From the IMG/VR virus record IMGVR_UViG_3300047491_001293, positions 1 to 64,000 of that record: 64,000 nucleotides of DNA. One strand, 5' to 3'. Position numbers and translations under genes: made by a program. Below, piece after piece: positions 2,351 to 50,362 of the stretch (position 1 is its first letter; every line of letters starts with the position of its first letter). This DNA is from a virus. The notes under the pieces are model-generated. The model saw only the letters and a program-made list of their open reading frames with translations. It did no database searches and had not been told where the DNA came from.

Positions 2351-2842
2351 ATGAAAACATTCAAACAGTTCATGGAGGATGAGGAGAGAAAGCTGGTGGT
2401 CCAGGGTGTTCTGGTCGAAGACATGCAGGACAAGCTCCGAAGACTACTTAGCCAGATAGCCTCAGCGACAACGGCAGCTGGAGTGGTGTCACTGAGCCAA
2501 TCTGCTGGAATAGACCTTGACCAGCTAGACCAAATGGGGATTGGCATAGGCGAAATCATGGAGTTCCTCAAGAGGGCAAGGTTGACGGTTGATCAATTCA
2601 AGATACTGAGCTCCTTGAGGGATGATCTTAAGCTGCGACTCAGAGACCAATGCTTCTCAGACCTTTCAAAGTTCAAAGGCACGACCAGATGGCTGGATGA
2701 AAAGGGAAAGAGCATAGATGCCTGCAAAAAGTATTGCGACATGACCAAGGATGAAAAAGCGTGTAGCAAGTCTGGGAGCACGGTATACAACTTTGGAAGA
2801 TACAAGAGGGTTGCAAGGAACCCATTCGCAAGAAGGTATTAG
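2351..2842 (+). CDS. Leader-tagged protein, putative internal head protein (163 aa)
   Basis: Begins MKTFKQFMEDEE, the closest match here to the T4 capsid-targeting sequence MKTYQEFIAE. The rest is helical (residues 15-110), with a repeated hydrophobic pattern and GIDLDQLDQMGIGIGEIM, then a cysteine-containing basic tail (DACKKYCDMTKDEKACSKS; ends NPFARRY). No enzymatic domain recognised. The start has no Shine-Dalgarno site but sits three bases after a late-promoter-like box. I infer packaging into the head and leader removal; function after that is unknown. Confidence 0.75.
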   Translation: MKTFKQFMEDEERKLVVQGVLVEDMQDKLRRLLSQIASATTAAGVVSLSQSAGIDLDQLDQMGIGIGEIMEFLKRARLTVDQFKILSSLRDDLKLRLRDQCFSDLSKFKGTTRWLDEKGKSIDACKKYCDMTKDEKACSKSGSTVYNFGRYKRVARNPFARRY

Positions 2843-3916: not shown

Positions 3917-4285
3917 ATGTTTGTATTTACGGACAATGAACTAAAGAACTGGAAAAAGGAATGCAAGACCAAGATCCGTGAGCTAAAGAGCGAAATTCTT
4001 AAGCTAAGGCATAGGATCATGGAAATACATAGTCAGGAGAGACTGAGAAAGGAAAACAAGCTGACTAGGCGTAATTTGACGCAAGTCTGTAAGAAGTATG
4101 GACTTACGCTAGCCCATGATAGGCAAAGAGATACATACATGGTGGGCATAAGTGATAAGAATATAGCCAAGCATTTTGGTGGGGTTAATCCCCTTACTGA
4201 TATGCTAAGTATCTACTACGACCCCCATATACTACTAAAAGACATAGAGGACAAGGTACTACCACTAGTGTCTAAGAATGTATAG
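3917..4285 (+). CDS. Hypothetical coiled-coil protein, 122 aa
   Basis: Residues 8-50 form a charged heptad-type helix (LKNWKKECKTKIRELKSEIL...), followed by a compact C-terminal half (LTQVCKKYGLTLAHDRQRDT, DPHILLKDIEDKVLPLVSKN). Family not recognised. Start chosen at ATG 3917 with CGAGG upstream. Its 3' end overlaps the convergent gene at 4265 by 21 bp. Confidence 0.7.
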   Translation: MFVFTDNELKNWKKECKTKIRELKSEILKLRHRIMEIHSQERLRKENKLTRRNLTQVCKKYGLTLAHDRQRDTYMVGISDKNIAKHFGGVNPLTDMLSIYYDPHILLKDIEDKVLPLVSKNV

Positions 4286-4816
4286 TTGGCAGGACGCAGA
4301 ATGTATAGAAATACGCAGTTTTGATGCAAAAATAGCGTAAATATTTGAATAATCGAGTGTTTTTAATTGATTTAACTTGTTATCTGACAAGGATGGGCCG
4401 ATGTAGAATGGCTTGCCGTTGTTCCAATCTGGGCTGTCGGTGAAGTATCCCTTTGGCTGGTAGGTGGCCTTGAGCCCCTGGATTGGGGTGATGAGTGGGT
4501 TCTCGAATGTGTTTGGGAAGCCGAACTGCCTTGCGGTGAAGTCAATTGCGTCATTGTTGACGACTGGCATGATGTGTGCGTCGCCTTGGCCGCCCTTGCC
4601 GCCCATTTCTGGGTGTTTCTTGATCATTTCCGGGCTTGGCGGCACAAGCAGCAGCACCCTTGCCTTGATGCCGTTCTGTCCTGCCCAGTTGATGAATGCC
4701 CTTGTGACGGTCTTGCAGTCCATGTGTGCGACCCTCTTGCCGGCATCGCTGGAAAGGAAGTTGGAGACGGCACTCTGGGTCTCCATGCCCTGCAGGAATT
4801 CCATGAATGTTATCAT
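4265..4816 (-). CDS. Leader-tagged papain/transglutaminase-like candidate (183 aa)
   Basis: Starts with the leader MITFMEFLQGMETQ. A Cys-His-Asp order typical of papain/transglutaminase folds follows: C34 at the start of a helix (MDCKTVTRAFINWAGQNGI), H81 in DAHIMPVV and D92 in NDAIDFTARQFGF. The linker is Gly/Lys-rich. Such folds act as peptidases, deamidases or transglutaminases on host targets; which one is unknown. It is the last gene of a minus-strand run, overlapping the upstream ART gene by ATGA, with AAAGGAA as binding site. The triad call is by eye. Confidence 0.7.
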   Translation of the reverse strand: MITFMEFLQGMETQSAVSNFLSSDAGKRVAHMDCKTVTRAFINWAGQNGIKARVLLLVPPSPEMIKKHPEMGGKGGQGDAHIMPVVNNDAIDFTARQFGFPNTFENPLITPIQGLKATYQPKGYFTDSPDWNNGKPFYIGPSLSDNKLNQLKTLDYSNIYAIFASKLRISIHSASCQLYILRH

Positions 4817-6417
4817 TTCTGTTCCTTTCCCAGTAAATCTTGGATTCTTTTGACTAAAGTTTTGAAGTTCATTCGCCCCATGGCCTTGGCAAGTTTGATG
4901 GCCTTGGTGCGGGTGTCCCAGATGCTAACATCCATGAAGGTTCTCCCGTTGTGCTCACTGACTGTGAATAGGCCACTGTCAAGCAACATCTTGAGGGTTA
5001 TGTCACTGAGCTTCTCCTTGGGAATCTCAGATCCTCTCAAGCGGGAAAACATGTCCAAGTTTTTCTCGATCAGCTTGACATTTTGTGCCCAGTAAGAGTC
5101 CCTCAGTATGTTCCTAACCTTTTCATCGGTGATATCTGGTTCAAGTATTGTGGCAATGTTGTACCCACGATCCTCCGACTTCTCGCCTATGACACCGGCA
5201 TCCAAGAGGGCGATGTATTCTGGACTGTCGCTGTATGGGGTTTGGCCATCCTTGAGCATTTTGGTGATTGGGTGTTCGGTCATGGGGACATCCTCGAACT
5301 TGACCCACCTCTTGGAACCTTCTATGTCCTTGCGCATTACCCATGGCTGTATTCTGCCTGGTTGTATTCTGCCACGATAGGCAAGGGTCGAGGATATGTC
5401 AACCGATGCTTGGGCGGTTGGAACCTTAGTGTCCTCATCGGGTGCCAGTTTATCGGGATCCAATCCAGTGGTATCAATCCGAATGATAAGTGGTTCTCCG
5501 CCATGTTTTTTTGCTGCTTGGATGGCCGCCTCACGAGTGGCTGCGTCTGGGTCTGTGGCAAGGTAAACAAGGTCGTCGTGGCTGAGAGCATAGACATTGG
5601 TCGAGCCATATGATCCTGAGGATCCCGTGACACTCCTTGGCTGTAGTCCCTTCTGCTTGATCCCATCATACCAAAGGTTTGTCGATGTGCCGTGGTAGAA
5701 GTGCTTGGGCATCTTGTTGGCAAGTCGGATTTCGGGCCTGCTCATCCAGTATGCCACGGTTCTGTGTTTATTCTTCGCCCCCTTCATGTGGCCTGCTTGG
5801 AAGTAATGCTCCACGGAGTAGCTGTCTATGTCGGTGTACTTGCTCCTGAGGGCATTAATGATCTGACGGAATTCCTTGGATTGTGGGCTGAGCTTTTGTA
5901 GTTGGATGGTTTTCCAACCCAAGACAAAGTGTGGCTTATTGGTCTTATAGTCGTAAGGAACGACATTGCCTTTGTTGTCCAAGGTCAGATGGATGTTTCG
6001 ATTGATATATGGACGACCGTCATCAGTCTTGTACTTTTCAAGGCTGGTGACCTTTGGATCAAGGATTGCCTCCTTGATTTGTAGCCACTCCTTGAACCTC
6101 CAGTACATAGTTTTTGCGGTTGGTGATGACAGGGTGTAGTCCATGTGTCGTCCCTTGTTGTGCACAAAGTCATTCTTGCGATAGAATCGCTCAAGTGCAC
6201 CCTTCTTGCCGGATTCATGCTCTGGACTGAGGACGATTGGCTTGCCAACCTTGGCTGCGTAATCTTTGATCATGCGGATTATATCGGTTCCGACCCCGGC
6301 ATTGCGCTTGTCTGGCTGGACATTGATCTTCCTCAACTCGATGCGGTCTTTGGACTCATGCGCCTCAACCTCGGCTGACTTGTGTTTGGAACGGATCTGG
6401 TCAAGAACTTCTTCCAT
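4813..6417 (-). CDS. GNAT - internal leader - ADP-ribosyltransferase-like fusion (534 aa)
   Basis: Residues 26-100 look like a GNAT acetyltransferase (IELRKINVQPDKRNAGVGTD, later LERFYRKNDFV). Residues 104-120 read MYWRFKEWLQIKEAILD, the same leader placed at protein starts elsewhere. Residues 235-330 resemble the KptA/ART fold: H242-G-T-S, GIKQKGLQP, DLVYLATDPDAA and EPLIIRIDTTGLD. The C-terminal 190 residues are helical and unassigned. It is translationally coupled to the genes on both sides. The internal methionine (genome position 6108) has no obvious binding site or promoter box, so a fused polyprotein or cleavage site is likelier than internal initiation. No family search was possible. 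Confidence 0.8.
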   Translation of the reverse strand: MEEVLDQIRSKHKSAEVEAHESKDRIELRKINVQPDKRNAGVGTDIIRMIKDYAAKVGKPIVLSPEHESGKKGALERFYRKNDFVHNKGRHMDYTLSSPTAKTMYWRFKEWLQIKEAILDPKVTSLEKYKTDDGRPYINRNIHLTLDNKGNVVPYDYKTNKPHFVLGWKTIQLQKLSPQSKEFRQIINALRSKYTDIDSYSVEHYFQAGHMKGAKNKHRTVAYWMSRPEIRLANKMPKHFYHGTSTNLWYDGIKQKGLQPRSVTGSSGSYGSTNVYALSHDDLVYLATDPDAATREAAIQAAKKHGGEPLIIRIDTTGLDPDKLAPDEDTKVPTAQASVDISSTLAYRGRIQPGRIQPWVMRKDIEGSKRWVKFEDVPMTEHPITKMLKDGQTPYSDSPEYIALLDAGVIGEKSEDRGYNIATILEPDITDEKVRNILRDSYWAQNVKLIEKNLDMFSRLRGSEIPKEKLSDITLKMLLDSGLFTVSEHNGRTFMDVSIWDTRTKAIKLAKAMGRMNFKTLVKRIQDLLGKEQK

Positions 6418-6418
6418 G

Positions 6419-7210
6419 TTATGATCTCTTGTACCTGTAGGTTATGTAGGCGCTTGCGTCGAAGTTGTCATTCCATATCAGCGCATTGACACTCTCCCGT
6501 GTCCTCTCGATTGTGGCCTCGAATGGGATGAACTCCAGGGCCTTTTCCTCGAGGTCCTTGGCCATCTCATGGAGCATGTACTTCGTGTACTTGTCGAATG
6601 TGGGCTTGTCCTTCTCCCAGCCCCTCTGCAGTGGGAAGTACTCTGGGTCGAGCTTCTTGCCATCTGGCCTCTCTGGGTGGTAGTGCTTGTAGTACTCTAC
6701 ATTCTGGCCAAGCATTGATGCCTTGATGTGGTACCACACATAGTCGGACATGTCGCCCTTGTCAAGGGTGTGCCAGAGCTCATCTGGCCTTACGCCAAGT
6801 GGCTTCCAGAGGTCGCTTCCTGACATCTTCAGCGTTGCGTGGATCCTCTCATCGATGGTCTCAACCGGGAGCTTCCACTCGACGCTGATGACAATCTCGC
6901 CTGTTGGGGCGAAGCTGGGATCATCGACCTCCTCATCGGGCAGGTGCTCCTTGAGGTCAATTTCCGGCTTGGTCTTGAATATCATCTCGAATATCTTGTT
7001 CTTTATCTTCCTTGCGAATGGGCTTGTGTTGCACCATTCCGTGAGCTGCCTGTCAAACCTTGACAGCTTGTCCCACTCCCACTCCCCATCGTCATCGCCG
7101 CCACCGCCGTCCCCGGTGTCTATGTCATCGATGCCGCCGCCGCCGGACTTGAGGGTTGGCGTGCCGGCCTTGGTGGCCATGCTCTCCAGGAATTCCTTGA
7201 ATGTGATCAT
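6419..7210 (-). CDS. Leader-tagged protein with Gly/Asp linker (263 aa)
   Basis: Starts MITFKEFLESMATKAGT, followed by a flexible Gly/Asp linker (SGGGGIDDIDTGDGGGG), then a structured domain (WDKLSRFDRQLTEWCNTSPF ... YITYRYKRS) rich in Trp, Tyr and acidic residues. Domain not recognised. Leader, flexible spacer, folded cargo is the layout expected if the leader is clipped. The frame extends 15 codons upstream to 7255, but ATG 7210 carries the leader and follows a CATAGATAA box by four bases, with no Shine-Dalgarno site. First gene of a three-gene minus-strand operon. Confidence 0.75.
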   Translation of the reverse strand: MITFKEFLESMATKAGTPTLKSGGGGIDDIDTGDGGGGDDDGEWEWDKLSRFDRQLTEWCNTSPFARKIKNKIFEMIFKTKPEIDLKEHLPDEEVDDPSFAPTGEIVISVEWKLPVETIDERIHATLKMSGSDLWKPLGVRPDELWHTLDKGDMSDYVWYHIKASMLGQNVEYYKHYHPERPDGKKLDPEYFPLQRGWEKDKPTFDKYTKYMLHEMAKDLEEKALEFIPFEATIERTRESVNALIWNDNFDASAYITYRYKRS

Positions 7211-7241
7211 GCTTTTATCTATGGTGAAATCTAGATAATCC
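7211..7241. promoter_or_regulatory. 31-bp divergent late-promoter region
   Basis: Minus strand carries CCATAGATAAAA (7213-7224) just before the ATG at 7210; plus strand carries CTAGATAAT (7231-7239) just before the ATG at 7242. Neither start has a Shine-Dalgarno site. Two leader-tagged genes appear to fire back to back from one short element. Confidence 0.5.
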
Positions 7242-7724
7242 ATGGCGAACATCATTGGTTTTTTTGAGTGGCTTGGTCGCAGGGATGGAGCTCTTCCGCC
7301 CTTGCCTGGTGAGCATCCGATTCCGTCTGGCCATGTGAGGTTGTACCATCAGACCGATCCATCGAATGTGGATTCCATACTTGCGCATGGCTTGGGGAAA
7401 TCGCACTCAAAAGGTGCCAATTTTGATGAGCCATCCGTCATATGGGCTGGCAGGGAGCCGTTCTATGGTGGCGTCTATGGCGATGGTGTCGCAACGGTGG
7501 AGTTTTCGGTTCCGAAGATCCAGTTTGATGCGCCCGACAAGCTCCGTGTTGACACGGTGCCTCCTGAGTCCATCATTGCGGTGCACCTGAACTGGCATGG
7601 GATAGCCCGCCAGTTGATTAGGGACTACCCCGATGATGCCGATTATGTCCGTGGCTTTGCGGACATAGACAACGACCACAGGATGGCGGTCGATGCGTAT
7701 CTGAGGCACATGGGCAAGGCTTGA
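7242..7724 (+). CDS. ADP-ribosyltransferase-like protein with leader (160 aa)
   Basis: Begins MANIIGFFEWLGRR, a variant of the leader. The body starts VRLYHQTDPSNVDSILAHGL (H36), the opening strand and helix of many ADP-ribosyltransferase and KptA-like folds (YHxT...I...GL). It continues SVIWAGREPFYGG and VATVEFSVPKIQF. An acidic residue that could act as the catalytic glutamate is V-E-F or later, but I cannot fix it. NAD-dependent modification of host protein or nucleic acid is inferred. It runs divergently from another leader gene and ends next to the convergent gene at 7725. Confidence 0.7.
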   Translation: MANIIGFFEWLGRRDGALPPLPGEHPIPSGHVRLYHQTDPSNVDSILAHGLGKSHSKGANFDEPSVIWAGREPFYGGVYGDGVATVEFSVPKIQFDAPDKLRVDTVPPESIIAVHLNWHGIARQLIRDYPDDADYVRGFADIDNDHRMAVDAYLRHMGKA

Positions 7725-7997
7725 TTACTTTACTCTTATCACCGAGTCTGTTTCATTTCTCCACTCGTCGCCGACCTCGGCATGTGGTGCCCAGTCCGCC
7801 AGGGTTTTGCCATCATAGTCTGTGTCGTCCGAGAATGAGTTGATGGACAAGAGGTCGCTTAGGCTTCGTTTGGTGGAATAGCCACGGCCTGTCTTGTCCC
7901 TGACCTTGAACATCCTTGAGTTGCCGCTCATCTGGCCAATAACGCTCTCCATCCACTTCTGGTCGCTGATTGGATTCTGGTCTGTGTAGTGTGACAT
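7725..7997 (-). CDS. MSHYT-leader protein 1 (90 aa)
   Basis: Starts MSHYTDQNPISDQKWMESVI, a 23-residue N-terminus shared with the genes at 8032 and 9108. The remaining 65 residues (basic, then acidic) differ from those two. Start fixed by AAGGAG six bases upstream. The conserved head with unrelated tails suggests a targeting or docking signal. No known domain. Confidence 0.75.
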   Translation of the reverse strand: MSHYTDQNPISDQKWMESVIGQMSGNSRMFKVRDKTGRGYSTKRSLSDLLSINSFSDDTDYDGKTLADWAPHAEVGDEWRNETDSVIRVK

Positions 7998-8031: not shown

Positions 8032-8427
8032 TTATTCGTAGCCTGGTGGCAGTGGTGGAAGCTGGCCCTTGGGTACGACTGGGTGGTTGTATGGGTTTTC
8101 TGGGTCTTGTTGGCTTTGTTTGGCGCTTGCCGATATCTCTTTATAAAGACCAACAATTTTGCTTCTTGCTTGCGCTGATGTTTTTGGGGCCAGCTTGGCG
8201 AGCATGATGCTGAGCTGGTTCAGGAAGTTCTGCATCCCGGCATGGTCATCTGGCTGGAAGGCATATGCTGTGTAGGCAAGAACCTCCTTCAGCTTGTCAT
8301 GGAACCTCAACTTTGCGTCAAGAATTTCCTCGCCGACACCCTCATTGACCCTTAGGCTTATCTGTCCAAGCAGGCTCTCCATCCACTTATGGTCGCTGAT
8401 CGGCTTCTGGTTTGTGTAGTGTGACAT
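8032..8427 (-). CDS. MSHYT-leader protein 2 (131 aa)
   Basis: Starts MSHYTNQKPISDHKWMESLL then GQISLRVNEG. The body is helical (AKLRFHDKLKEVLAYTAYAF, LSIMLAKLAPKTSAQARSKI) and ends in a Pro-rich tail PPLPPGYE. AAAGGAA binding site; a CTAGATAGG late-type box lies at 8449-8457. Function unknown beyond membership of the shared-leader family. Confidence 0.75.
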   Translation of the reverse strand: MSHYTNQKPISDHKWMESLLGQISLRVNEGVGEEILDAKLRFHDKLKEVLAYTAYAFQPDDHAGMQNFLNQLSIMLAKLAPKTSAQARSKIVGLYKEISASAKQSQQDPENPYNHPVVPKGQLPPLPPGYE

Positions 8428-8483: not shown

Positions 8484-9116
8484 ATGATGTCAGTGGTGGT
8501 GCCATACAGGGGAAGGCCGAGCCACCTCGAGAGTTTCCTTGTGGAGATCCAGGCCAAGGGTGGCGTGCCGCTTGCGGTCATGGTCGTGGAGCAGTACGGG
8601 TCTGGCCTGTTCAACAAGGGCAGGCTGTGCAACATCGGCTTCGACATGACAAGGGGTTCGGCGGACTACTTCTGCTTCCACGATGTTGACATGATGCCGG
8701 TGGATGTTGACTACTCGATGCCGGGCTGCGTGATGCACCTTGCCACCAGGGCGTCGCAGTTCTCGTACAAGATGCCTGGGGCGAACTACTTTGGTGGCGT
8801 GAACCTGTTCAGGCGTTGTGACTTCGAGGCTGTGAACGGCTTCAGCAATGGCTATCTTGGATGGGGATGCGAGGATGATGACCTGCGCAAGCGTGTTCTG
8901 CGGCATGGGCTTGTTGTTGGGTCACGGGAGTGTGTGTTTGAGTGCCTCCCCCATGACAGGACAAGGGACGAGGATGCGTACAGGAGGAACTATGAGAGAC
9001 TGTGTCGTGATTATGACTACTCAGCCGATGGTCTGTCATCGCTACGCTATAAGGTTCTTGAAATTAAAGATATCAATGGGTATGCAAAGCTGGCTCTAGT
9101 TGATGGTTTAGACTGA
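8484..9116 (+). CDS. Beta-1,4-galactosyltransferase-like (GT7) glycosyltransferase
   Basis: GT-A fold of the GT7 type: VVVPYRGRPSHLESFL at the N-terminus, FNKGRLCNIGFD, the metal-binding HDVDMMP (DxD), FGGVNLFRRCDFEAVNGFSN and the acceptor motif GWGCEDDDLRKRV. These are the hallmarks of beta-4-galactosyltransferases and N-acetylgalactosaminyl relatives. It probably moves galactose or a related sugar from UDP-sugar to a virion or host glycan. At 210 aa it is a minimal catalytic domain without a membrane anchor. GGGGG precedes the ATG pair at 8484/8487. Ends overlapping the convergent gene at 9108 by 9 bp. Confidence 0.85.
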   Translation: MMSVVVPYRGRPSHLESFLVEIQAKGGVPLAVMVVEQYGSGLFNKGRLCNIGFDMTRGSADYFCFHDVDMMPVDVDYSMPGCVMHLATRASQFSYKMPGANYFGGVNLFRRCDFEAVNGFSNGYLGWGCEDDDLRKRVLRHGLVVGSRECVFECLPHDRTRDEDAYRRNYERLCRDYDYSADGLSSLRYKVLEIKDINGYAKLALVDGLD

Positions 9117-9491
9117 CTCCAGCTCCTTGAGCATTCGTGTGGCAAGGTCTCTTGGCATCTTCTCAGACAAATCCTTGAGATGGCTCAGCATACCCTCTGG
9201 GTCGCCCTCGCCGTGCCATGGCTGGAACTCTGGGACTTCGCTCTCATCTTGGTAATCAGGATGTTTGTATTCGCCCTTGGCTATTCTTTGAGCCATGGTC
9301 GAGAAGTATTTTTTTGCAATCAATATTATCTTCTCTTCCCTCTTCCAGTTTTTCTCAAGCTCATCTGGCTCATCAGTTTCATCGGAGTGGCTCTCAAGGG
9401 TTGGCCTCTGTGGCTTGCCTCCAATTTGCCTCAAGACGCTGTCCATCCAGGCCTGCTCGCTGATCGGGTTTTGGTCTGTGTAATGTGACAT
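9108..9491 (-). CDS. MSHYT-leader protein 3 (127 aa)
   Basis: Starts MSHYTDQNPISEQAWMDSVL then RQIGGK. It is followed by a charged linker (ESHSDETDEPDELEKNWKRE) and a helical segment (EEKIILIAKKYFSTMAQRIA, HLKDLSEKMPRDLATRMLKE). TAGGAGAG lies before ATG, and a CATATATA box is at 9511-9518 on the minus strand. Function unknown; third member of the second leader family. Confidence 0.75.
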   Translation of the reverse strand: MSHYTDQNPISEQAWMDSVLRQIGGKPQRPTLESHSDETDEPDELEKNWKREEKIILIAKKYFSTMAQRIAKGEYKHPDYQDESEVPEFQPWHGEGDPEGMLSHLKDLSEKMPRDLATRMLKELESV

Positions 9492-9936: not shown

Positions 9937-11076
9937 ATGAGATTCAAAGATTGGATGATATCCGAGAGCTCCAAGGGCATAGTGTCACTGGCCTACCCGG
10001 CGGTTGTCGCAAAGATATTCAACCGCAACCTTGGCAAGCATGCGCAGCTGATGGCGAAGTGGTACCGTGACTACATGTGGCCGAAAGATGAGTTCCCAAG
10101 GAACTGGTGGCACCAGGCTCACTGGTCAGCAAGGGGCAACATCACCATATCTGACTACACGGACCTATACGATGCCGCAACCGACGAGGCATCCTACAAC
10201 AAAATGCTTCGGCAACTGGGGATTGAGTTGGATGGAGGCAGTGAGTTCAACAGCGAGGAAAAGCGCAAGAGAATAGAGATGCTGATCGAGCATGACATCA
10301 TGGGCAGCTCGTTCTTCAACAACAGCCTTGTGCGCAAGATACTATCCGGCGAGATCCGTGACCTGTCGCCATACAAGAACCTTCGCTTTGGCGATGCCCA
10401 GATGAGCCTTGAGAAGAAGATGATGTTCTCCGGCATGAAAACGGTCAAGTCGTACGAGGATGGATACAAGTGGATTGATGTTGGGTCGAAGTGCAGTTAC
10501 ATTGGCAGGGAGATGAGGAACTGCGGCAGGGCCCTCTCAGTCTACGGCGACCAAGACAAGACAATACTTGTGCTTTTCGACGGCAATGAAAAGCCGCACA
10601 TACTGGTCACATATCTCCCCAACGACAGGGTCATAACCGCAGACGAGGGTGTTGGGAGCTCTGAGCCCAAGGAGAAGTACCATGGCTACATACTTGACCT
10701 CGCCAGCCACCTCGGCGCAGAGTATGACATCCACCACGCAAAGTCCAATACCTTGAGGGGCAAGTACCTGCTGTCACGCCTTGGGGCGAATTTTGAGAAG
10801 CTGCCAATCGAGGACACATTTTATGTGTACCATGTTTTTGAGGTTGGTGGCCGCAAGTTTTACACGAACGGATATACTGTCGTGCCCGCCGAGGATGTCG
10901 ACAGGGTTGGGGCAGCCATTGGCGATGGCAGCCTCGTTCTGTCTGGCGTGAAGAAAGGGCGGATTCCACTCAATGAACTGATAAAGCTGGTCATGTCACG
11001 GGCTCACGCCAGAAACCTTGAGGATTTTGGGGTAAGGTACCAATCGCTTGAATCCATGCCAAGGGCTGGGGCTTAG
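9937..11076 (+). CDS. Leader-tagged 379-aa protein with PcfJ-like motif
   Basis: Starts MRFKDWMISESSKGIVSLA. N-terminal half is helical. The central part, GSKCSYIGREMRNCGRALSV (about residues 188-207), then ILVLFDGNEKPHILVTYLPN and IDLASHLGAEYDIHHAKSNT-like strands, recalls the C-x(6-8)-EM-NC core of PcfJ-like proteins; I rate that as weak. The C-terminus is alpha/beta and unassigned. Leader plus near-leaderless promoter suggest a packaged late protein. Confidence 0.7.
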   Translation: MRFKDWMISESSKGIVSLAYPAVVAKIFNRNLGKHAQLMAKWYRDYMWPKDEFPRNWWHQAHWSARGNITISDYTDLYDAATDEASYNKMLRQLGIELDGGSEFNSEEKRKRIEMLIEHDIMGSSFFNNSLVRKILSGEIRDLSPYKNLRFGDAQMSLEKKMMFSGMKTVKSYEDGYKWIDVGSKCSYIGREMRNCGRALSVYGDQDKTILVLFDGNEKPHILVTYLPNDRVITADEGVGSSEPKEKYHGYILDLASHLGAEYDIHHAKSNTLRGKYLLSRLGANFEKLPIEDTFYVYHVFEVGGRKFYTNGYTVVPAEDVDRVGAAIGDGSLVLSGVKKGRIPLNELIKLVMSRAHARNLEDFGVRYQSLESMPRAGA

Positions 11077-11077: not shown

Positions 11078-11317
11078 TCACTTGAAACCTGCCAGCCCGG
11101 CCTTTATGAGCCCGCCAGCAATGATTAGACCAAGCCCCAGTGGCGCAGACAGCAATCCCCACAGCATGCCAATGGCGGCTGCGCCGCTCCTGTCGCCTCC
11201 AAATAAGGCGATGACCAGAAGTTCATCTGGAACGATCATGAACGGCAGTATCCATAGGATGAGGAAAGCCCCAGAGATGACAAGGATGTTTGCCAGTATG
11301 TTGAGTGCCCTCCTCAT
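11078..11317 (-). CDS. Small membrane protein, two to three helices (79 aa)
   Basis: Starts MRRALNILANILVISGAFLI, followed by LWILPFMIVPDELLVIALF and a second hydrophobic stretch (AAIGMLWGLLSAPLGLGLII). The ATG overlaps the stop of the methyltransferase upstream (ATGA), so it is translationally coupled to that operon. The longer frame from 11413 is not needed. Function unknown. Confidence 0.65.
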   Translation of the reverse strand: MRRALNILANILVISGAFLILWILPFMIVPDELLVIALFGGDRSGAAAIGMLWGLLSAPLGLGLIIAGGLIKAGLAGFK

Positions 11318-13199: not shown

Positions 13200-13200
13200 G

Positions 13201-16000: not shown

Positions 16001-16729
16001 ATGGTGACTTTCTTTGAGTTTGTTGAGATACTGAGGCTTGAGGCCGCCGAAATAGCACGGGATCTTGGCGAGTTCAAGATCATCCATGACGGCATGGGAG
16101 ATTACCACAGCAGCTTCTCCCATGCGTCAACGCCAATAACCGTCTATTTCAAAAAGAAGGCCATGAGGGAGCCATCCTTTTCCAAGGATGAATCTGGCAA
16201 GCCAACACTGGAAAGGCTAAGTGGTTATGAGATAACATTCAAGGGTCTTAAGGACTTTGAGCCGACTGGGGAGGCTGGTGGCGATGCATTCTCCATTTAC
16301 GGCAAGGTGCTCGCTGTGGTGAAGAAATTCTTGGATGAGATGGCAACAAAGAAGCCAAACCCCGTTGAGTTCATCACATTCACTGGGTTTGACCCAAGGA
16401 TGAGCTTGATCTACGAGAGGTTTGTGAGGAAGCACCTTGGCGGGATGTACACCAGAGTTGACCCAGAGCATCTGGTGAGGAATGATGTGGTCAATGCCGC
16501 CAGGTCAATGACGCAGGGTGCGTCTGACAAGGCAATACAAGTTGGTCAAGATAGCCATGTTGGCTACCTTGACCAGATAAGACAGGCCAAGGGGAGCCAG
16601 GCTGCGCTGCAGCTCCTCAAGGCGCCAGAGGCGGAGAAGTCAGTGCCTTGGTATATGGTCAGGACAGCGCAACATCAACAACCAACGAAAGGAAAGAGAA
16701 ATGTACGACAGGAACAACCAGCACTATAA
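16001..16729 (+). CDS. Leader-tagged protein, paralogue of the gene at 40300 (242 aa)
   Basis: Starts MVTFFEFVEILRLEAAEIAR. Body alternates strands and helices (SGYEITFKGLKDFE, FSIYGKVLAVVKKFLDEMAT, PVEFITFTGFDPRMSLIYER, GGMYTRVDPEHLVRND). The same order of elements occurs in the leader protein at 40300-40974, so the two form a family. The last 40 residues (after SVPWYM) are Gln/Lys-rich and overlap the next gene by 29 bp. No function recognised. Confidence 0.72.
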   Translation: MVTFFEFVEILRLEAAEIARDLGEFKIIHDGMGDYHSSFSHASTPITVYFKKKAMREPSFSKDESGKPTLERLSGYEITFKGLKDFEPTGEAGGDAFSIYGKVLAVVKKFLDEMATKKPNPVEFITFTGFDPRMSLIYERFVRKHLGGMYTRVDPEHLVRNDVVNAARSMTQGASDKAIQVGQDSHVGYLDQIRQAKGSQAALQLLKAPEAEKSVPWYMVRTAQHQQPTKGKRNVRQEQPAL

Positions 16730-29244: not shown

Positions 29245-29763
29245 ATGGGTGGGATTAGATTCAAGGGTTTTCTGCTACATCAAGAAGTCAAGGCCATTCT
29301 TGAGAATGTCTGGGCAAGCATTCATGACCAGCCGGCTCCAAGCCCGAAGATCCCATTGCAGACACAGATCAAAAATCTACAAGACTTCATTAAGAAGAGG
29401 GAAGAAAACCAGAATCTTCTGAGGCTGCAAATAAAGAGACTGGAGAGATATTCAAGTGAATTTCCTTCGGATAAGCAGTCATCTGATTTGCAGATTGCAG
29501 ACGCCAACAGAACCATAGGTGAATTATACAGCCAAATAACCAAGGCCAAAAAGGAACTTGAGAAGATAAGTTCTGGAGCCGCAACCCCACAACAAAGCGG
29601 TGACTGGACGGCATATGACGACAAAAAGGCAAAAGGCATATTTGGTGACATATCAAGAAATCTTAAGACTGGCGCCTTTGGAAGGACTGAAACTGGCGAG
29701 TACATAACCAAAGCCGACCCTCGTTGGGCAAATTACAACATTGTAAGAGGCAACAAAAGATAG
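29245..29763 (+). CDS. Coiled-coil protein with leader-like start (172 aa)
   Basis: Starts MGGIRFKGFLLHQEVKAILE, a looser version of the leader (IRFKGFLLHQE). Residues 36-112 form a long helix (LQTQIKNLQDFIKKREENQN-LL..., TIGELYSQITKAKKELEKIS), followed by DWTAYDDKKAKGIFGDISRN. GAGGTG binding site. Virion-associated or scaffold-like role is a guess. Confidence 0.65.
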   Translation: MGGIRFKGFLLHQEVKAILENVWASIHDQPAPSPKIPLQTQIKNLQDFIKKREENQNLLRLQIKRLERYSSEFPSDKQSSDLQIADANRTIGELYSQITKAKKELEKISSGAATPQQSGDWTAYDDKKAKGIFGDISRNLKTGAFGRTETGEYITKADPRWANYNIVRGNKR

Positions 29764-38211: not shown

Positions 38212-38508
38212 TTACATCCAGTCGTACCAAGTCAAACTCTTGCCATCAGCAAGCTTTTGAAGATGACGGATGTCAACATGATTACTATTGAAGTTGGAAA
38301 CACTGGAATTAAAAGAATTTGGATTTTCTTGTTTGAATTTCTCAATTTTTGGCAGCAAGTCAGGGTTCTGGTTCAATATATCGGTAATTATTTTCATGCT
38401 TTGCTGATCTGTAACAGCCGAAAAAAGATCAGGAGGAATTTGTTCATTTAAAACATTGTCCTTAACTATCAAATTTTCACGAATCAAAAAATCATGGAAA
38501 CTTATCAT
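38212..38508 (-). CDS. Leader-tagged small protein (98 aa)
   Basis: Starts MISFHDFLIRENLIVKDNVL; the leader is followed by PPDLFSAVTDQQSMKIITDI, an Asn/Ser-rich stretch (NPNSFNSSVSNFNSNHVDI) and LTWYDWM. Start at 38508 is preferred over 38526 because it brings the leader to the N-terminus and is preceded by AGAGGTTG. No domain recognised. Confidence 0.7.
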   Translation of the reverse strand: MISFHDFLIRENLIVKDNVLNEQIPPDLFSAVTDQQSMKIITDILNQNPDLLPKIEKFKQENPNSFNSSVSNFNSNHVDIRHLQKLADGKSLTWYDWM

Positions 38509-38531: not shown

Positions 38532-39266
38532 TTAATCAGATTTACCACCGTTATTTTTTATTCTCTCGATCCTCTCAATGTGCTTCAGCCCGCTTTTTTT
38601 TATGTGGCCAATTGTATCATCGACCTCTTTATCCGCATTCATTATACTGATTGCCTGCTTGTCCTTGAATGTGTTTATGCCGAAGTTGAAATCCTTGCCC
38701 TTGAGCCTTCCAGTCCTGTCCATCAATATAAAGGTGACAAGGAGCTTTGGCCTCCTCTCATTCCTTATCATGCCCTTGCCATCGTACATGGTGTTGTAGA
38801 GCTTCCTAGGGAATCCACTCTCTGGCTGCAGTGACATGTGGTTGTCTATGACAAAATGCAAGGTTTCCATGTCCTCGGGAGACAAGGATAGGTACATGTC
38901 CTTTATTGGCCCAGTCAGCTTTTCGATCATTGGCATGTAATGCTTTGGAGACTCGTGCCCGTGCGATTTCACCTTTCCGTCATCGCCAAACTTGCTGGCG
39001 CTGGCTTTGCCGATGTCATGGAACCACGCAGCAAGCTTGAGAACCCTAAGGTCTGAATCGGAAAGGTTCATGTCAAGATTTTTGAAAACACTGTCTGGAT
39101 TTTCCTTGTCCCTTGCGATAAAATTCAAGGCCAGTGGGAGCCGGCTACGAACCATCCTGGTGTGCGTGAACACATCGCCCTCGGCGTGATGCTCGGGGTT
39201 CTGTGGCACTGGCTTCAAAATTTGCCTCAAGGAAACTTCTTTAATTAGGAACTGCTTGAAATTCAT
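38532..39266 (-). CDS. Leader-tagged HD-domain hydrolase (244 aa)
   Basis: Leader MNFKQFLIKEVSLRQILKPV, then an HD phosphohydrolase: H35 (DVFTHTRMVR), H83-D84 in LKLAAWFHDIGKA, H102/H104 in KSHGHESPKHY and a later helix LHFVIDNHMSLQPE. This is the metal-binding HD set of (p)ppGpp, dNTP and tRNA-CCA-type phosphohydrolases. A packaged HD enzyme could cut host nucleotides or RNA immediately after injection (inference). Start has no Shine-Dalgarno site but GGATATATAGG ends five bases before it. Confidence 0.82.
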   Translation of the reverse strand: MNFKQFLIKEVSLRQILKPVPQNPEHHAEGDVFTHTRMVRSRLPLALNFIARDKENPDSVFKNLDMNLSDSDLRVLKLAAWFHDIGKASASKFGDDGKVKSHGHESPKHYMPMIEKLTGPIKDMYLSLSPEDMETLHFVIDNHMSLQPESGFPRKLYNTMYDGKGMIRNERRPKLLVTFILMDRTGRLKGKDFNFGINTFKDKQAISIMNADKEVDDTIGHIKKSGLKHIERIERIKNNGGKSD

Positions 39267-40299: not shown

Positions 40300-40974
40300 T
40301 CACCATGTAAATATGCCTTTTCTGACACTTTGCGGCTTTGTCGCAGTTGATGGACTTTCCCTCTTCTGAGCCTTTAGCTGTTTCTTACGATCAACATCCT
40401 TGGCCGAAAATTTTGACATTTCAAACTCAAACCTTGCCCCCAGAAGCTCTTGCAGCAAGTCGGTGTGGACATAGTAATCCATACCAAGAGAATTTTCAAC
40501 CAGTTGGTAGCCAGCTGGACGCAAGAAAATTGTGTACAGCTTGTGGTATACGGACTTTTGGTCAACTGTCGATCCATAAAACTGTAGGACTTTTGGCCTT
40601 TCAACCTCAATCAAGGTTTTCACGGCACTGATCACCTCGGTTATGACATGGGTCGGACTTGCGCTTTTTCCAGTAGGCAGGTAGGCACGAACTGGGTGTG
40701 AATCGGATTCTTCCTTGAATGAAATGTTGAAACCCTTGACGCTTTTTATTTTTGACAATGCCTCATGGCCACGGATGCCAAGGTCATGACCCAAGTCGGC
40801 AGCCATAAATGCTTTTGGTATTGGCTGGATCATGACCTCAAAATATCCCATCTTGCCAGACTTGCTTGGTGAGCTGAATGTGTGCGTGAGGACATCACCA
40901 TGCCTCTGCAGCGCAACGGGACTGCTGGATGCAATCACCTCGACAATGTGAAAAAACTCAAAGAAACGAATCAT
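40300..40974 (-). CDS. Leader-tagged protein, paralogue of the gene at 16001 (224 aa)
   Basis: Starts MIRFFEFFHIVEVIASSSPV. Core elements VKGFNISFKEESDSHP, VITEVISAVKTLIEVERPKV-LQFYGST, KSVYHKLYTIFLRPAGYQLV and YYVHTDLLQELLG follow the same order as the 16001 protein (strand, helix, P-x(5)-F-x-G, S-x-Y, Gly-Tyr strand). The frame continues to 41004, but ATG 40974 carries the leader and directly follows CATATATACATT, with no Shine-Dalgarno site. Basic C-terminal tail. Confidence 0.72.
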   Translation of the reverse strand: MIRFFEFFHIVEVIASSSPVALQRHGDVLTHTFSSPSKSGKMGYFEVMIQPIPKAFMAADLGHDLGIRGHEALSKIKSVKGFNISFKEESDSHPVRAYLPTGKSASPTHVITEVISAVKTLIEVERPKVLQFYGSTVDQKSVYHKLYTIFLRPAGYQLVENSLGMDYYVHTDLLQELLGARFEFEMSKFSAKDVDRKKQLKAQKRESPSTATKPQSVRKGIFTW

Positions 40975-41025: not shown

Positions 41026-41865
41026 ATGAAAGGCTTTACACATTTTATAGAGACACAAGAGTTGGCCCAAGAACTTTTAAAAATGGGACTGAACCCTTCA
41101 AATTATGATTTGGACAGGATGATAAATGAGGTCGACTGGAAAAAAGCCATTGCGACTGGGGTCTTGGCAGTGGCTCCATTCATAAGTGGCGCAAAACACA
41201 AGGATATTCCAGACAAGCAGCCACAGCCATACACATACAACATCCAGAGATCCTACGAGGATGAACTTTCCATAAAGGCAAAGCAGGATGACAAGAAATA
41301 CCTTGCAGCCGGCGGCCCAAGGTTTGAGGGATCGGTTCCAGGCGCCAATCAATTCGTAAAGTTCAGGAAATCAGAGGCTCACCGTGACATTATCGAAAAG
41401 GCCGGTCTTGATGCCGATTACATACCATCAAATGTGAAGGAATTCGTGTTTGGCTCAAAAATCCAAAGCGTGCACAAGCACTCGGAGACAAGCGGGAGGA
41501 TTGAAGATTTCAAGAGCGGAGTGGTCAAGACCCTTGGAAGAGACAGCTTCGTTGAGATAATCAAATCAGAGAAATTGAAAAATGGTGGATCCTTCATATC
41601 CGCCAACATAAGCGGTGTCATCATGGCCATGGACCAGCAGGATGCCGAAAGAAGGGTGGAAAGCCAAATCGAGAACATAATCAGAGCGAATGGATTTGAC
41701 TTGAATGGCATGTCAGTGAAGGTCCATCGTGAATTCAAGCATGTTGAGCCAGCGCCAAGAAGCACCATAGACTACAAACAAGCACGAGAATGGTACACCG
41801 AGTCAAATGGTGTCAACAAGTTCAAATACAATGCAAGTGTGAGTTTCACCATCAAGCCAAACTAA
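41026..41865 (+). CDS. Leader-tagged protein, 279 aa
   Basis: Starts MKGFTHFIETQELAQELLKM. A short hydrophobic stretch near 40-55 (KAIATGVLAVAPFISGAK) is followed by a Pro/Gln segment and a soluble domain with SFVEIIKSEKLKNGGSFISA, DQQDAERRVESQIENIIRAN and GMSVKVHREFKHVEPAPRST. No family recognised. AGGGGAAG before ATG. 4-bp overlap with the convergent ART-like gene. Confidence 0.72.
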   Translation: MKGFTHFIETQELAQELLKMGLNPSNYDLDRMINEVDWKKAIATGVLAVAPFISGAKHKDIPDKQPQPYTYNIQRSYEDELSIKAKQDDKKYLAAGGPRFEGSVPGANQFVKFRKSEAHRDIIEKAGLDADYIPSNVKEFVFGSKIQSVHKHSETSGRIEDFKSGVVKTLGRDSFVEIIKSEKLKNGGSFISANISGVIMAMDQQDAERRVESQIENIIRANGFDLNGMSVKVHREFKHVEPAPRSTIDYKQAREWYTESNGVNKFKYNASVSFTIKPN

Positions 41866-42674
41866 AACATTTTATCAAGCCAGAGCATGGCTGGAAGATA
41901 TTGTTTTGGCCACAGATAATACCCGAATGCATTCAAGAATTCAACTTTTGGATTCCTGGATTTTTTTATTGTGTCTTTTATGTTCTTGAGATTTTCAAAT
42001 TTCAAATATGGATGCCTTTTCAATAGTCTTTCCCAGAAAACATCTGGATCAAATTTATCCTCTGGCATGAAAAGCTTATCTGATTTCTGCCCAGATCCAT
42101 ATTCATTGGCAAATTCATCTGGTGTGATTTTTTTACCTTTAACATAAAAAGCTTTTATTCTACTTGGATTCAAGTCGCCAACAAACAAGGCTTGGTTTTC
42201 CGTGGAAACGAAAAGCAAATAGGCCATGTATGGGTTGTCACTTTCCCTGACAAAGCTAGGCAAATCTTTGTTCTGCTTGAATTCCATCTCAAACTTTTTC
42301 TTTGCTTTTATTCTTTCAATATTGCCCTTGAAAACTTGCACATACTGGCCTTGGATTCCATATGAACCACTTGGCCACACTGGCGGCTCAAGCTCTTCGT
42401 ATTTGGCAACAAACTCAACAACAACACCATCAGAACCAATAAACTTCTCCGCCGTTTTTACATCAAGAGTCACGAAAAGACCTTTGGGGTTGGTGGCCGC
42501 CTCATAAGAGTATCTTCTCTTGGCTCTGACTTTACCTGACAATCCTTGAGTTGCCAAATTGATGGCATCATTGATGTCGTTGAAACCATGATACACAGTC
42601 AGAGTGTCGCCTTTCTTCAAGGGTTCAGTGGAGTCAAGCTGGTGATGGGTTTCAAGCCATAGTTTAAAGTTCAT
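41862..42674 (-). CDS. Leader-tagged ADP-ribosyltransferase-like protein (270 aa)
   Basis: Leader MNFKLWLETHHQLDSTEPLK, then GDTLTVYHGFNDINDAINLA (H29; ART strand 1 YHG), GLFVTLDVKTAEKFIGSDGV (the T/S-x-D-x-x-x-A segment) and VVVEFVAKYEELEPP, where an acidic residue could be catalytic. The C-terminal half (LFVGDLNPSRIKAFYVKGKK, QKSDKLFMPEDKF) recurs in the partial gene at the right edge. Likely NAD-dependent modifier delivered by the virion (inference). GTAAATAAATC immediately before ATG; no Shine-Dalgarno site. Confidence 0.75.
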   Translation of the reverse strand: MNFKLWLETHHQLDSTEPLKKGDTLTVYHGFNDINDAINLATQGLSGKVRAKRRYSYEAATNPKGLFVTLDVKTAEKFIGSDGVVVEFVAKYEELEPPVWPSGSYGIQGQYVQVFKGNIERIKAKKKFEMEFKQNKDLPSFVRESDNPYMAYLLFVSTENQALFVGDLNPSRIKAFYVKGKKITPDEFANEYGSGQKSDKLFMPEDKFDPDVFWERLLKRHPYLKFENLKNIKDTIKKSRNPKVEFLNAFGYYLWPKQYLPAMLWLDKMF

Positions 42675-42744
42675 GATTTATTTACCCAACAACGGTTAAC
42701 ACCTGAATGTTTTATTGAGGTTTTCACAAAAAAGACGATAAATA
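42675..42744. promoter_or_regulatory. Divergent region with late boxes
   Basis: Minus strand GTAAATAAATC (42675-42685) abuts the ATG at 42674; plus strand GATAAATA (42737-42744) is 23 bp before the ATG at 42768, which also has AAAGGAAA. Confidence 0.45.
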
Positions 42745-45539: not shown

Positions 45540-45569
45540 ACGGGCGCCAGGATGGTGCCCGTTTTTTTT
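45540..45569 (+). terminator. Rho-independent terminator after hsp20
   Basis: Stem ACGGGCGCC / GGTGCCCGT (one G-T pair) with a 5-nt loop at 45540-45562, followed by eight T. It lies 20 bp past the Hsp20 stop and abuts the end of the minus-strand gene at 45568. Confidence 0.88.
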
Positions 45570-47853
45570 ACAATGTAGATCCAATGTTCTGACTGGTGGA
45601 CACGACTGGAATCAGCGTGGACACCTTGGCTGTGAACTGCTGCCCATCATCTGTGGATATCACGGCGGATTGTGCGCCACGGATCATTCTGAATGAAGCG
45701 ATCCTTCCACTTTTTCCATAGTTCAATCCACTGGAAACAAAAACCTTATCGCCAATCCCAAAGTTTCCACCGTCCAAACCTTGCTGCCTCTCACTTGGCT
45801 GGTTTGCAGCACTGGATGTATCCCTCTGAATGTATGTCACTGGCAGCTCAACAGCTCTTGACACACCTGGTCCTGATCTTGCGTTAAGGACCCTCAGCGA
45901 TGCATAAAGAATGTTGTTCTTTATTCTCATGCTGGTAATGACACCCTTCTTCTTGTTGCCAACAGAGAAATGCGAAACTATGAAGTGATCACCAGGCTTT
46001 AACCTCTCCCTATTGTGCGGGTGCGAAAGTATTGCATCAAGGTTTGCCGGGGTTTGAATCTTTATCTCCTCTTTTTCACCGTCATCCATATTTTCAATGT
46101 CGTCCCTCTTGGCTCTCCTATCTTCCTTCTTTTCCTTTCTCAAGAGATCGGCATCGATTTCGGCGTCTGAACTCAAAAACCTTGGCCACATCTTGACAGT
46201 CTCATCATCCCACTGGACCTTGACTCTCAAATCAAACACAATGTCGTCCAGTGAACCAACGCCTCTTGTGCGCAGCGAGAACGACAAAACCTTGCCCCTT
46301 TGCTTCAATTCCCTCCGCATTGGATCAATCGACCCAATCACGGTGTCGCCTTCCTTGTAGTCGATTCCTTCTGACCTCCTCTTCTCCTCAATCTTGCCCT
46401 TGTACCATTTGATGTGATCTCGGACAGAATCAACCTTGGTCAATAGCAACAAATCAACCTGATTGTCAGACTCCTCCTCAATGTCAAACTCGGCGCTGGT
46501 TGGGTTTTTTTGGAACTGCAGTTTGGCCATGACCTGATCTGATCTCTCGTTGATGATTGAAAACCCAAGAACCTTGAAGCACTTCAATGCATATGGGGCG
46601 AACTCACGCCTTATATAGTTGAAACGGGCAATGTCGCCAACCTTGATTCCACTTGGATTGTTGGCTCTGTCCGCAGCAAGCGCATTGGCACGAGCCGCCA
46701 TGCGTTCAGCCCTGTTGCGCCGTGCGACTTGCATTGACCTCTCAATGTCATCGTCAATGTCCTGCATCATATCCGTGCGTATTCTTGAGAGCAATCCAAA
46801 TGGGTTGCTCATGGAGTTTATCTTTTGGCTCAGCACCTCAAATGCCTTTGACTTGACGAAGCCGTCACTGTCTGCGTTGACATCGATGCTGCTGTACACT
46901 GTTTCGCCAGAGTCATTCTTGACTATGTCGCCATCCTTGTTCCTCTTGGGGATCAAGATAGTTTTTGGAACCTCTGGGAAACCTTGAGGTACAAAATTTT
47001 TGTCATACGCATCACGGTTGATCCAATTGCCAAAGATGCCAACAAACTTGTCGGGGAAAAGGTTCTTTATGCTCCATGTCTCATACACATTTTTTCTTGC
47101 CGAAACTGTCTGGCTCCTAAACTTATCAATCTGCTCTGGCGTCCTTTTTATCTTTGCTGCACGCACGGCCCCAGATATGTCGGTCTTTTCGACTGGCGTC
47201 CAAGACATGCTAACAGGTTTCAATGTCTTTATGTACTCACCAACGGCATGCATGACCCCGGCAAAGACACCTGGGCCGATTGGAACCTTTATGGTCTCCA
47301 CGGATCCATCACTCTTCTTTCGGTACATCTTCCTTGTGATCTTCATATCCGTGTATTCACCGCCACGGAAGAATGATATTGACACGACACGCCTTGGGTC
47401 GCCAGATATGTTGACTGAGTAACAGGTGGGATTGTGGCCTCGGTAGCTAAGGCACCGACATGGATTCTCATTTCTTTCACTACATCCATCACCAAGAACA
47501 TTGAACCTATATGTGTAACTGTTACTTGGCACGACCTCACCAGAGTCAATGTCTGATCTTTTTGGCAGTGGCTCCAGCCAGTGTCCATCGTAAAACTTTT
47601 TGTCAAACTCCAGATCGCCAACCTTGGCCATGACGACATCGCCAGAATCCCTGTATACCTCCGCATCGTCACCATCTATGGACTTTATCACCCCATGGAT
47701 CGTCTCGCCATCAGCCTTGGCAATGACATCATCGCCAACCGCAAAGCTGCCAGATTTTTCCTCATGAAGGAGGCGCATCTGGCAATCAATAACTTCGGCA
47801 AGAAAATCAAACTTTGACTCTTCGTTGGCGAGGAATTTCCTGAAATCACGCAT
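45568..47853 (-). CDS. Leader-tagged 761-aa protein with KOW/SH3-like segments
   Basis: Leader MRDFRKFLANEESKFDFLAE. Several SH3/KOW-like beta segments: SFAVGDDVIAKADGETIHGV-IKSIDGD near residue 36, KEGDTVIGSIDPMRRELKQR near 495, and FGIGDKVFVSSGLNYGKSGR-IASFR near 700. A Cys cluster (DGCSERNENPCRCLSYRGHN) near 133-156 may bind zinc. Largest tagged protein in the window. It looks like a modular DNA- or RNA-binding virion protein. Near-leaderless start with ATATATAG before ATG. Confidence 0.75.
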   Translation of the reverse strand: MRDFRKFLANEESKFDFLAEVIDCQMRLLHEEKSGSFAVGDDVIAKADGETIHGVIKSIDGDDAEVYRDSGDVVMAKVGDLEFDKKFYDGHWLEPLPKRSDIDSGEVVPSNSYTYRFNVLGDGCSERNENPCRCLSYRGHNPTCYSVNISGDPRRVVSISFFRGGEYTDMKITRKMYRKKSDGSVETIKVPIGPGVFAGVMHAVGEYIKTLKPVSMSWTPVEKTDISGAVRAAKIKRTPEQIDKFRSQTVSARKNVYETWSIKNLFPDKFVGIFGNWINRDAYDKNFVPQGFPEVPKTILIPKRNKDGDIVKNDSGETVYSSIDVNADSDGFVKSKAFEVLSQKINSMSNPFGLLSRIRTDMMQDIDDDIERSMQVARRNRAERMAARANALAADRANNPSGIKVGDIARFNYIRREFAPYALKCFKVLGFSIINERSDQVMAKLQFQKNPTSAEFDIEEESDNQVDLLLLTKVDSVRDHIKWYKGKIEEKRRSEGIDYKEGDTVIGSIDPMRRELKQRGKVLSFSLRTRGVGSLDDIVFDLRVKVQWDDETVKMWPRFLSSDAEIDADLLRKEKKEDRRAKRDDIENMDDGEKEEIKIQTPANLDAILSHPHNRERLKPGDHFIVSHFSVGNKKKGVITSMRIKNNILYASLRVLNARSGPGVSRAVELPVTYIQRDTSSAANQPSERQQGLDGGNFGIGDKVFVSSGLNYGKSGRIASFRMIRGAQSAVISTDDGQQFTAKVSTLIPVVSTSQNIGSTL

Positions 47854-49921: not shown

Positions 49922-50362
49922 TTAGGGCTTTACGCCAGATGGATCAAAATCCGCACCAGGTGCTGGTTTGGCAGCCGTGGTCGGTATGGTTCCAGGCATC
50001 TGTTTGTTCTGGACTTGTGATGCTTGGCTTTCCAGTTCCTTGATAGTTTGATCAAGCCATCTGACCATTGGCATTGCTTTAACGCCACCGGCAACACCAG
50101 TGGTGGTTGAATCCTTCCAATTAGGATCTTTACTTATAGCATCCAAGGCCTTTTTCAATGCGTCAACGGCATTGTCATATTTCACCTTGGGGCCAGCCAC
50201 TTGGCTATAGGCAGCTTGGCTGCCCTGCTTAACACCTTGCCAAAGCTGCTTTGCGCCCTGCCAAAGGTTTTTGCCAAAGTCCATGAGTCCAGCCTCATCA
50301 ATGCCAATGCTTTCATACAACTTCGGATCACGATGTTCAAGATATTCACTAAATTTGTACAT
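49922..50362 (-). CDS. Leader-tagged protein, 146 aa
   Basis: Starts MYKFSEYLEHRDPKLYESIG, with NLWQGAKQLWQGVKQGSQAA (a repeated LWQG-KQ motif), VKYDNAVDALKKALDAISKD and a Pro/Ala-rich C-terminus (GTIPTTAAKPAPGADFDPSG). GGAGAAAT before ATG. Domain unknown; the duplicated amphipathic motif could contact membrane or DNA. Confidence 0.7.
   Translation of the reverse strand: MYKFSEYLEHRDPKLYESIGIDEAGLMDFGKNLWQGAKQLWQGVKQGSQAAYSQVAGPKVKYDNAVDALKKALDAISKDPNWKDSTTTGVAGGVKAMPMVRWLDQTIKELESQASQVQNKQMPGTIPTTAAKPAPGADFDPSGVKP

What the first reader, a model, noticed from the sequence alone, without database searches (positions are those of the whole stretch)
4813..7724. Two adjacent ADP-ribosyltransferase-like proteins and a third at 41862
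Proteins at 4813 (H242-G-T-S ... VYLATD ... IIRID), 7242 (YHQTD ... ILAHGL) and 41862 (VYHGF ... GLFVTLD ... VVVEF) each carry the opening H/Y-H-x-T strand and later strand pattern of ART/KptA folds, are very different from one another, and carry a leader. T4 injects Alt, an ADP-ribosyltransferase, so a set of diverged ARTs would fit early host takeover.
Basis: partly seen in the sequence, partly recalled or inferred. Interest (0 to 1): 0.7.

Follow-up and report, generated by a model that had tools for sequence, protein, structure and literature searches.

The report
Head-targeting tags on phage ART-like proteins
A fragment of an uncultured phage genome encodes one well-supported and two possible ADP-ribosyltransferases, which belong to a set of about 15 mostly unrelated proteins that share a short tag resembling the one phage T4 uses to pack proteins into its head for injection into the host.

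Summary
The three proteins and their motifs are as described. P1 (4813-6417, minus) is a supported ADP-ribosyltransferase: its domain matches phrog_11974, which is KVP40.0290 and its relatives, and those match Pfam PARP. P1 also has an N-terminal GNAT domain like those in injected polyvalent phage proteins. P2 (7242-7724, plus) and P3 (41862-42674, minus) carry the ART strand motifs, but no family, homologue or usable structure model backs them, so they are plausible only.
The "leader" is the stronger finding. About 15 otherwise unrelated proteins in the window share M-x(0-3)-[FYW]-x-x-[FYW]-[LMIVF]. This matches the residues that T4 internal-protein capsid-targeting sequences need (aromatics at 4 and 7, processing at 8 and 10). 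It occurs in 15 of 104 ORFs here, against 4 of 607 in a related huge phage. P3 has it at the N-terminus and P2 near it. P1 has it internally, exactly between GNAT and ART, as the best of 15,738 internal positions. Nine of 14 tagged genes also carry a TA[TGA]ATA box 10-13 bases before ATG, against 0.6% of all ATGs.
Best reading: late-expressed, head-packaged, injected effectors. They work like T4 Alt but are not in the Alt (R-S-E) family. Packaging, injection and enzyme activity are inferred, not shown.

The parts
4813..6417 (-). P1: 534-aa protein, GNAT domain (res 1-105) + internal capsid-targeting-like leader (res 104-117) + ART domain (about res 236-360) + unknown C-terminus
6103..6417 (-). 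P1 GNAT domain, like those of polyvalent PLxRFG/DarB-like injected proteins
   Evidence: Pfam Acetyltransf_7 E 5.8e-4, below the curated cut-off; 31-37% identity, best E 1e-8, to polyvalent proteins by tblastn; phrog_10691 E 5.9e-13
6067..6108 (-). P1 internal leader MYWRFKEWLQIKEA, with an I-x-E putative prohead-protease site
   Evidence: leader PSSM rank 1 of 15,738 internal positions, 16.3 against 9.3 for the next
5338..5712 (-). P1 ART domain (FYHGTS ... VYLATD ... IIRID ... AYRGRIQPGRI)
   Evidence: phrog_11974 E 1.6e-6, phrog_13493 E 2.8e-4; alignment with KVP40.0290-type proteins
7242..7724 (+). P2: 160-aa ART-like protein (motifs only) with leader-like GFFEWL at residue 6
   Evidence: model pLDDT 51.7, no fold match
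7232..7237 (+). late-promoter-like box TAGATA at -10 of P2 ATG
41862..42674 (-). P3: 270-aa ART-like protein (motifs only) with N-terminal leader MNFKLWLET
   Evidence: model pLDDT 36.9
42679..42684 (-). late-promoter-like box TAAATA at -10 of P3 ATG
6419..7210 (-). leader protein MITFKEFLESMAT (true start Met16 of the listed ORF), 1 bp upstream of P1
   Evidence: leader, box at -11, junction
4265..4816 (-). leader protein MITFMEFLQGMET; overlaps the P1 stop by 4 bp, so it lies in the same operon
2351..2842 (+). leader protein MKTFKQFMEDEE, the closest to T4 IP leaders; box at -10
9937..11076 (+). leader protein MRFKDWMISE; box at -10
16001..16729 (+). leader protein MVTFFEFVEIL; box at -10
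29245..29763 (+). leader protein MGGIRFKGFLLHQE, found by PSSM and not in the training set
38212..38508 (-). leader protein MISFHDFLIRE
38532..39266 (-). leader protein MNFKQFLIKE with an HDIGK (HD-domain-like) motif; box at -13
40300..40974 (-). leader protein MIRFFEFFHIVE (true start Met11); box at -10
41026..41865 (+). leader protein MKGFTHFIET
45568..47853 (-). leader protein MRDFRKFLANEE, 761 aa; box at -10
49922..50362 (-). leader protein MYKFSEYLEHR

Best explanation
P1, and probably P2 and P3, are ADP-ribosyltransferase-type effectors of a large tailed phage. They belong to a set of about 15 mostly unrelated proteins that share a T4-type capsid-targeting leader, most of them with a late-promoter-like box in front. 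The proposed course is: late expression, binding of the leader to the scaffold core, inclusion in the prohead, trimming of the leader by a prohead protease after I/L-x-E in those that have the site, packaging with the DNA, and injection, after which the ARTs transfer ADP-ribose from NAD to host macromolecules and P1's GNAT may acetylate host protein. Shown here: the shared leader, the shared box, the GNAT plus ART make-up of P1, and P1's relation to PARP-like KVP40 proteins. Inferred: packaging, cleavage, injection, catalysis and targets, and the ART nature of P2 and P3.
For: Leader enrichment: 15/104 ORFs against 2.7% in shuffles, 4/607 in LR745208 and 12/366 in KVP40; Fisher tests. The leader matches the T4 CTS determinants reported in PMC9026906: residues 4 and 7 for targeting, 8 and 10 for processing. 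PMC3012670 says T-even internal proteins are diverse with only the CTS conserved. Box TA[TGA]ATA at -10 to -13 in 9/14 leader genes against 21/3329 ATGs and 4/85 other ORFs. P1 ART. KVP40.0290, a PARP-like protein of a T4-like phage, itself begins MKNLKSFMEELQ, which resembles the leader. P1 GNAT resembles GNATs of injected polyvalent proteins, in which GNAT typically neighbours ART (PMC5512222).
Against: No virion data. The record is an 84-kb fragment, and no gp21-type protease was found in it; that search rang nowhere, so it is uninformative. I-x-E at the expected offset is present in only about 5 of 15 leaders. The P1 leader is internal, whereas T4 CTSs are N-terminal. No acidic residue sits where the third catalytic ART residue is expected in P1, by motif reading. 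P2 and P3 lack any homology or fold support. KVP40.0290's leader scores only on the looser pattern.
Confidence: 0.6

Rival explanations
1. The shared N-terminus is not a capsid-targeting signal but another sorting or localisation tag, such as one for a phage nucleus, a membrane or a late complex, and the proteins act after late expression, not after injection.
For: No packaging data; the I-x-E processing site is absent from most leaders; the closest relative by structural protein, LR745208, lacks the leader.
Against: The pattern coincides with the T4 CTS determinants, the tagged set includes polyvalent-type domains known from injected proteins, and a CTS-like leader is on the KVP40 PARP-like homologue.
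Confidence: 0.22
2. P2 and P3 are not ARTs; the YH-x-T ... GL resemblance is coincidental and only P1 is an ART.
For: No profile, homologue or fold support. The weak P3 tblastn hits lie in 72-aa non-ART-like ORFs. P3 against the ART profile scores no better than shuffles.
Against: Ordered strand motifs in both; P2 scores slightly above all 40 decoys in hhalign (20.9 against 19.6); all three carry the leader.
Confidence: 0.4
3. P1 is a chance or assembly fusion of a GNAT gene with a leader-ART gene whose real start is Met104.
For: The leader follows the GNAT exactly, and KVP40.0290 begins with its leader at a comparable distance from the ART.
Against: Met104 has no ribosome-binding site and no late box. 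Met1 lies 1 bp after the upstream stop, and the reading frame runs through without a stop.
Confidence: 0.2
4. Ordinary case: head-packaged ARTs are already known to be common in jumbo and myo-type phages, and this is simply another phage with several.
For: PMC9503650 reports ARTs in over 40% of jumbo phages, with Bacillus phage G having at least 10, and 44% in contexts that suggest head packaging.
Against: That survey does not describe, in the parts read, a shared leader plus late box on so many proteins, nor an internal leader.
Confidence: 0.5

Closest known systems
T4 internal proteins IPI-III and their capsid-targeting sequence
   Same: A short leader with aromatics three apart followed by an aliphatic residue, shared by otherwise unrelated proteins; I-x-E-like site in some
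   Different: About 15 proteins in 64 kb; leader spacing varies; in P1 it is internal; no protease identified in the fragment
T4 Alt
   Same: Proposed deployment: an ART packaged in the head and injected
   Different: Alt is of the R-S-E Alt/VIP2 clade (PMC5512222); P1 is histidine-type and PARP/KptA-like, with no Alt profile match
KVP40.0290 / phrog_11974 (Schizotequatrovirus PARP-like protein)
   Same: Homologous ART domain (31-35% identity in the aligned region); CTS-like leader at its N-terminus at a similar distance from the ART
   Different: No GNAT domain; P1's tyrosine in VYLATD is phenylalanine there
Polyvalent proteins (PLxRFG / DarB-like; Tunturi_5 gp273)
   Same: GNAT domain like P1's; GNAT typically neighbours ART in one polypeptide; predicted to be injected
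   Different: P1 is small (534 aa), carries a T4-type leader, and its ART does not match ART-PolyVal PF18760

Membership tests
Histidine-type ART (PARP/KptA-like) | Profile similarity to a recognised ART family | tested here: met
   P1 only: phrog_11974 E 1.6e-6, whose KVP40-type members hit PF00644 PARP at E 1.5e-5 to 7e-3. P2 and P3: no match.
Histidine-type ART (PARP/KptA-like) | First-strand His and second-motif Tyr | tested here: inconclusive
   P1 has H242 and Y285. P2 H36 and P3 H29 are present, but the Tyr is replaced (IWA, LFVT). KVP40 has Phe.
Histidine-type ART (PARP/KptA-like) | Third catalytic acidic residue | tested here: inconclusive
   By motif alignment only: no acidic residue at the expected place in P1; some mono-ARTs (PARP10 group) also lack it (own knowledge).
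Histidine-type ART (PARP/KptA-like) | ART fold with NAD pocket | tested here: inconclusive
   P2 and P3 models too poor (pLDDT 51.7 and 36.9); P1 not modelled.
T4 Alt/VIP2 (R-S-E) ARTs | R-S-E active site / Alt-family profile match | tested here: not met
   First strand carries His, not Arg; no Alt-family match in Pfam, PHROGs or NCBIfam.
T4-type capsid-targeting sequence | Aromatics at about 4 and 7 and an aliphatic at 8, shared by unrelated proteins | tested here: met
   compared with PMC9026906
T4-type capsid-targeting sequence | L/I-x-E processing site | tested here: inconclusive
   I-x-E at the same offset in about 5 of 15 leaders (9937, 38212, 38532, 40300, P1), read
T4-type capsid-targeting sequence | N-terminal position | tested here: inconclusive
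   Met for P3 and most others; near-terminal in P2; internal in P1
T4-type capsid-targeting sequence | Encapsidation and cleavage by a gp21-type protease | not testable with these tools
   Protease search on the fragment uninformative
Polyvalent proteins | Disparate effector domains in one polypeptide, GNAT beside ART | tested here: met
   P1: GNAT 1-105 and ART about 236-360
ART-PolyVal PF18760 | Profile match | tested here: not met
   No match in the whole record at E <= 10, with controls ringing

The most novel reading that the evidence does not exclude
P1 is a head-packaged mini-polyprotein. A capsid-targeting sequence placed between two effectors carries both into the prohead, and the prohead protease then cuts after I-K-E to release a separate acetyltransferase and ADP-ribosyltransferase. 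It is part of a leader-plus-late-box regulon through which this phage can tag any new gene for injection.
Probability: 0.25. Interest if true: 0.7.

Novelty: new variant of a known kind. Interest (0 to 1): 0.5.

Why it matters
If right, the leader gives a sequence-level way to list a phage's injected proteins directly from its genome, including orphans with no homologue, in a lineage not close to the T-evens. It would show the T4 trick of tagging cargo for the head scaled up to about 15 effectors with a shared late control element, and it makes the question of which host proteins phage ARTs and GNATs modify in the first minutes testable.

Tried and rejected
IMG/VR scans for relatives of P1, P2, P3, the structural protein, the HD protein and the 761-aa leader protein found none beyond KVP40-type records with the ART alignment. 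Genome contigs and plasmids for P2: none. P1, P2 and P3 against LR745208, and P2 and P3 also against KVP40: none. P2 fold search: no meaningful match. P3 tblastn hits in Certrevirus are 72-aa ORFs and were judged chance. phrog_6170 match to P3 (E 0.02) could not be traced. PSSM and promoter statistics were kept only after comparison with shuffles, all ATGs and control phages.

Full report
Setting. The window is bases 1-64000 of an 84,311-base virus record, an uncultured tailed-phage fragment. A virion structural protein at 52211-53854 has its nearest relatives in a 485-kb uncultured phage, LR745208 (31% identity over 92%), and in T4-like cyanophages.

The observation. The three proteins exist as stated and carry the stated motifs. 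They share no detectable sequence similarity with one another.

P1. The ART region matches phrog_11974 (E 7.5e-6 with the whole protein, 1.6e-6 with the domain) and phrog_13493 (E 2.8e-4). phrog_11974 is the family of KVP40.0290, which matches its whole length. tblastn finds the same Vibrio-phage family, weakly (E 0.04-1). Members of that family match Pfam PARP at E 1.5e-5 to 7e-3, just under the curated cut-off, and one is annotated as PARP catalytic domain. Weak matches to RNA 2'-phosphotransferase fall on the same first-strand motif. H242-G-T-S and the VYLATD strand align with the family. Residues 1-105 are a GNAT domain resembling those of PLxRFG/DarB-like polyvalent proteins. In such proteins GNAT typically neighbours ART (PMC5512222).

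P2 and P3. No profile library, PDB sequence, phage, plasmid or contig collection gives a relative. Single-sequence AlphaFold models are poor, and the fold search with P2 is meaningless. P2 scores marginally above decoys against the ART profile; P3 does not. Their ART status therefore rests on motifs and remains open.

The leader. 15 of 104 ORFs begin with M-x(0-3)-[FYW]xx[FYW][LMIVFA], against 2.7% for shuffled proteins, 4 of 607 in LR745208 and 12 of 366 in KVP40; Fisher p 3e-10 and 1e-4. A position matrix built from 12 leaders ranks P1's internal RFKEWLQIKEA first of 15,738 internal positions (16.3; next 9.3), finds a further leader at 29245, and places P2's GFFEWL above every internal position except P1's. 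Leave-one-out scores of some training leaders were modest (one was negative), so single weak members are less certain than the set. In T4 IPIII, targeting depends on residues 4 and 7 and processing on 8 and 10 (PMC9026906), and T-even internal proteins share little but this sequence (PMC3012670). The window's leaders, such as MKTFKQFMEDE and MNFKQFLIKE, fit that layout; T4's MKTYQEFIAE is quoted from my own knowledge.

The box. Nine of 14 tagged genes, P2 and P3 among them, have TA[TGA]ATA starting 10-13 bases before ATG, against 21 of 3,329 ATGs (binomial 3e-17) and 4 of 85 other ORFs (Fisher 7e-7). It resembles the T4 late promoter TATAAATA (own knowledge) and lies so close to ATG that mRNAs may be leaderless; that is inference. 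P2 and the tagged gene 6419-7210 diverge across a 31-base gap holding one box each way. P1 sits in a tight operon between two other tagged genes.

Mechanism. The best account is a set of late-made, head-packaged, injected effectors; ARTs and a GNAT among them modify host proteins at once on infection. Head-packaged ARTs are a known and common theme (PMC9503650). What is new is the number of tagged proteins, the linked box, and the leader inside P1, where a prohead protease could cut after I-K-E and part the two enzymes. Alternatively Met104 may be a second start, though it lacks a ribosome-binding site and a box.

Limits. Nothing here shows packaging, cleavage, injection or catalysis. The genome is incomplete, no protease was found in the fragment (uninformative), and the third catalytic residue in P1 is unclear.

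Noticed in passing
7725-7997, 8032-8427, 9108-9491 (minus): Three neighbouring genes share a second, different N-terminus, MSHYT[DN]Q[NK]PIS[DE]..WM[ED]S, followed by unrelated bodies; possibly another sorting leader.
   Followed up: partly
boxes before 2351, 7210(-), 7242, 9937, 16001, 39266(-), 40974(-), 42674(-), 47853(-): TA[TGA]ATA box at -10 to -13 of ATG, probably a late promoter, perhaps giving leaderless mRNAs.
   Followed up: yes
11314-14166 (minus): Three adjacent paralogous cytosine-C5 DNA methyltransferase-like genes.
   Followed up: no
25879-31382 (plus): Several copies of a glycosyltransferase-like protein beginning MKITIYVITYKND(K/R)ILNEW.
   Followed up: no
record 76381-79805 (L002 13382-16806), minus: A DUF5131-like gene (named from memory) seems split: its N-terminal part (79644-79805) and C-terminal part (76381-76926) are parted by about 2.7 kb of repeat-rich sequence; no Rfam match.
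   Followed up: partly
416-494 and 2119-2315: Tandem repeats of 21 and 34/46 bases near the window start.
   Followed up: no
L022 37733-39178 and 39187-39834 (KVP40): KVP40 has two adjacent genes next to gp24/gp55 with the same kind of leader (MLGNFDSFLSEN, MKQFCNFLAEV), likely unrecognised head-packaged proteins.
   Followed up: no
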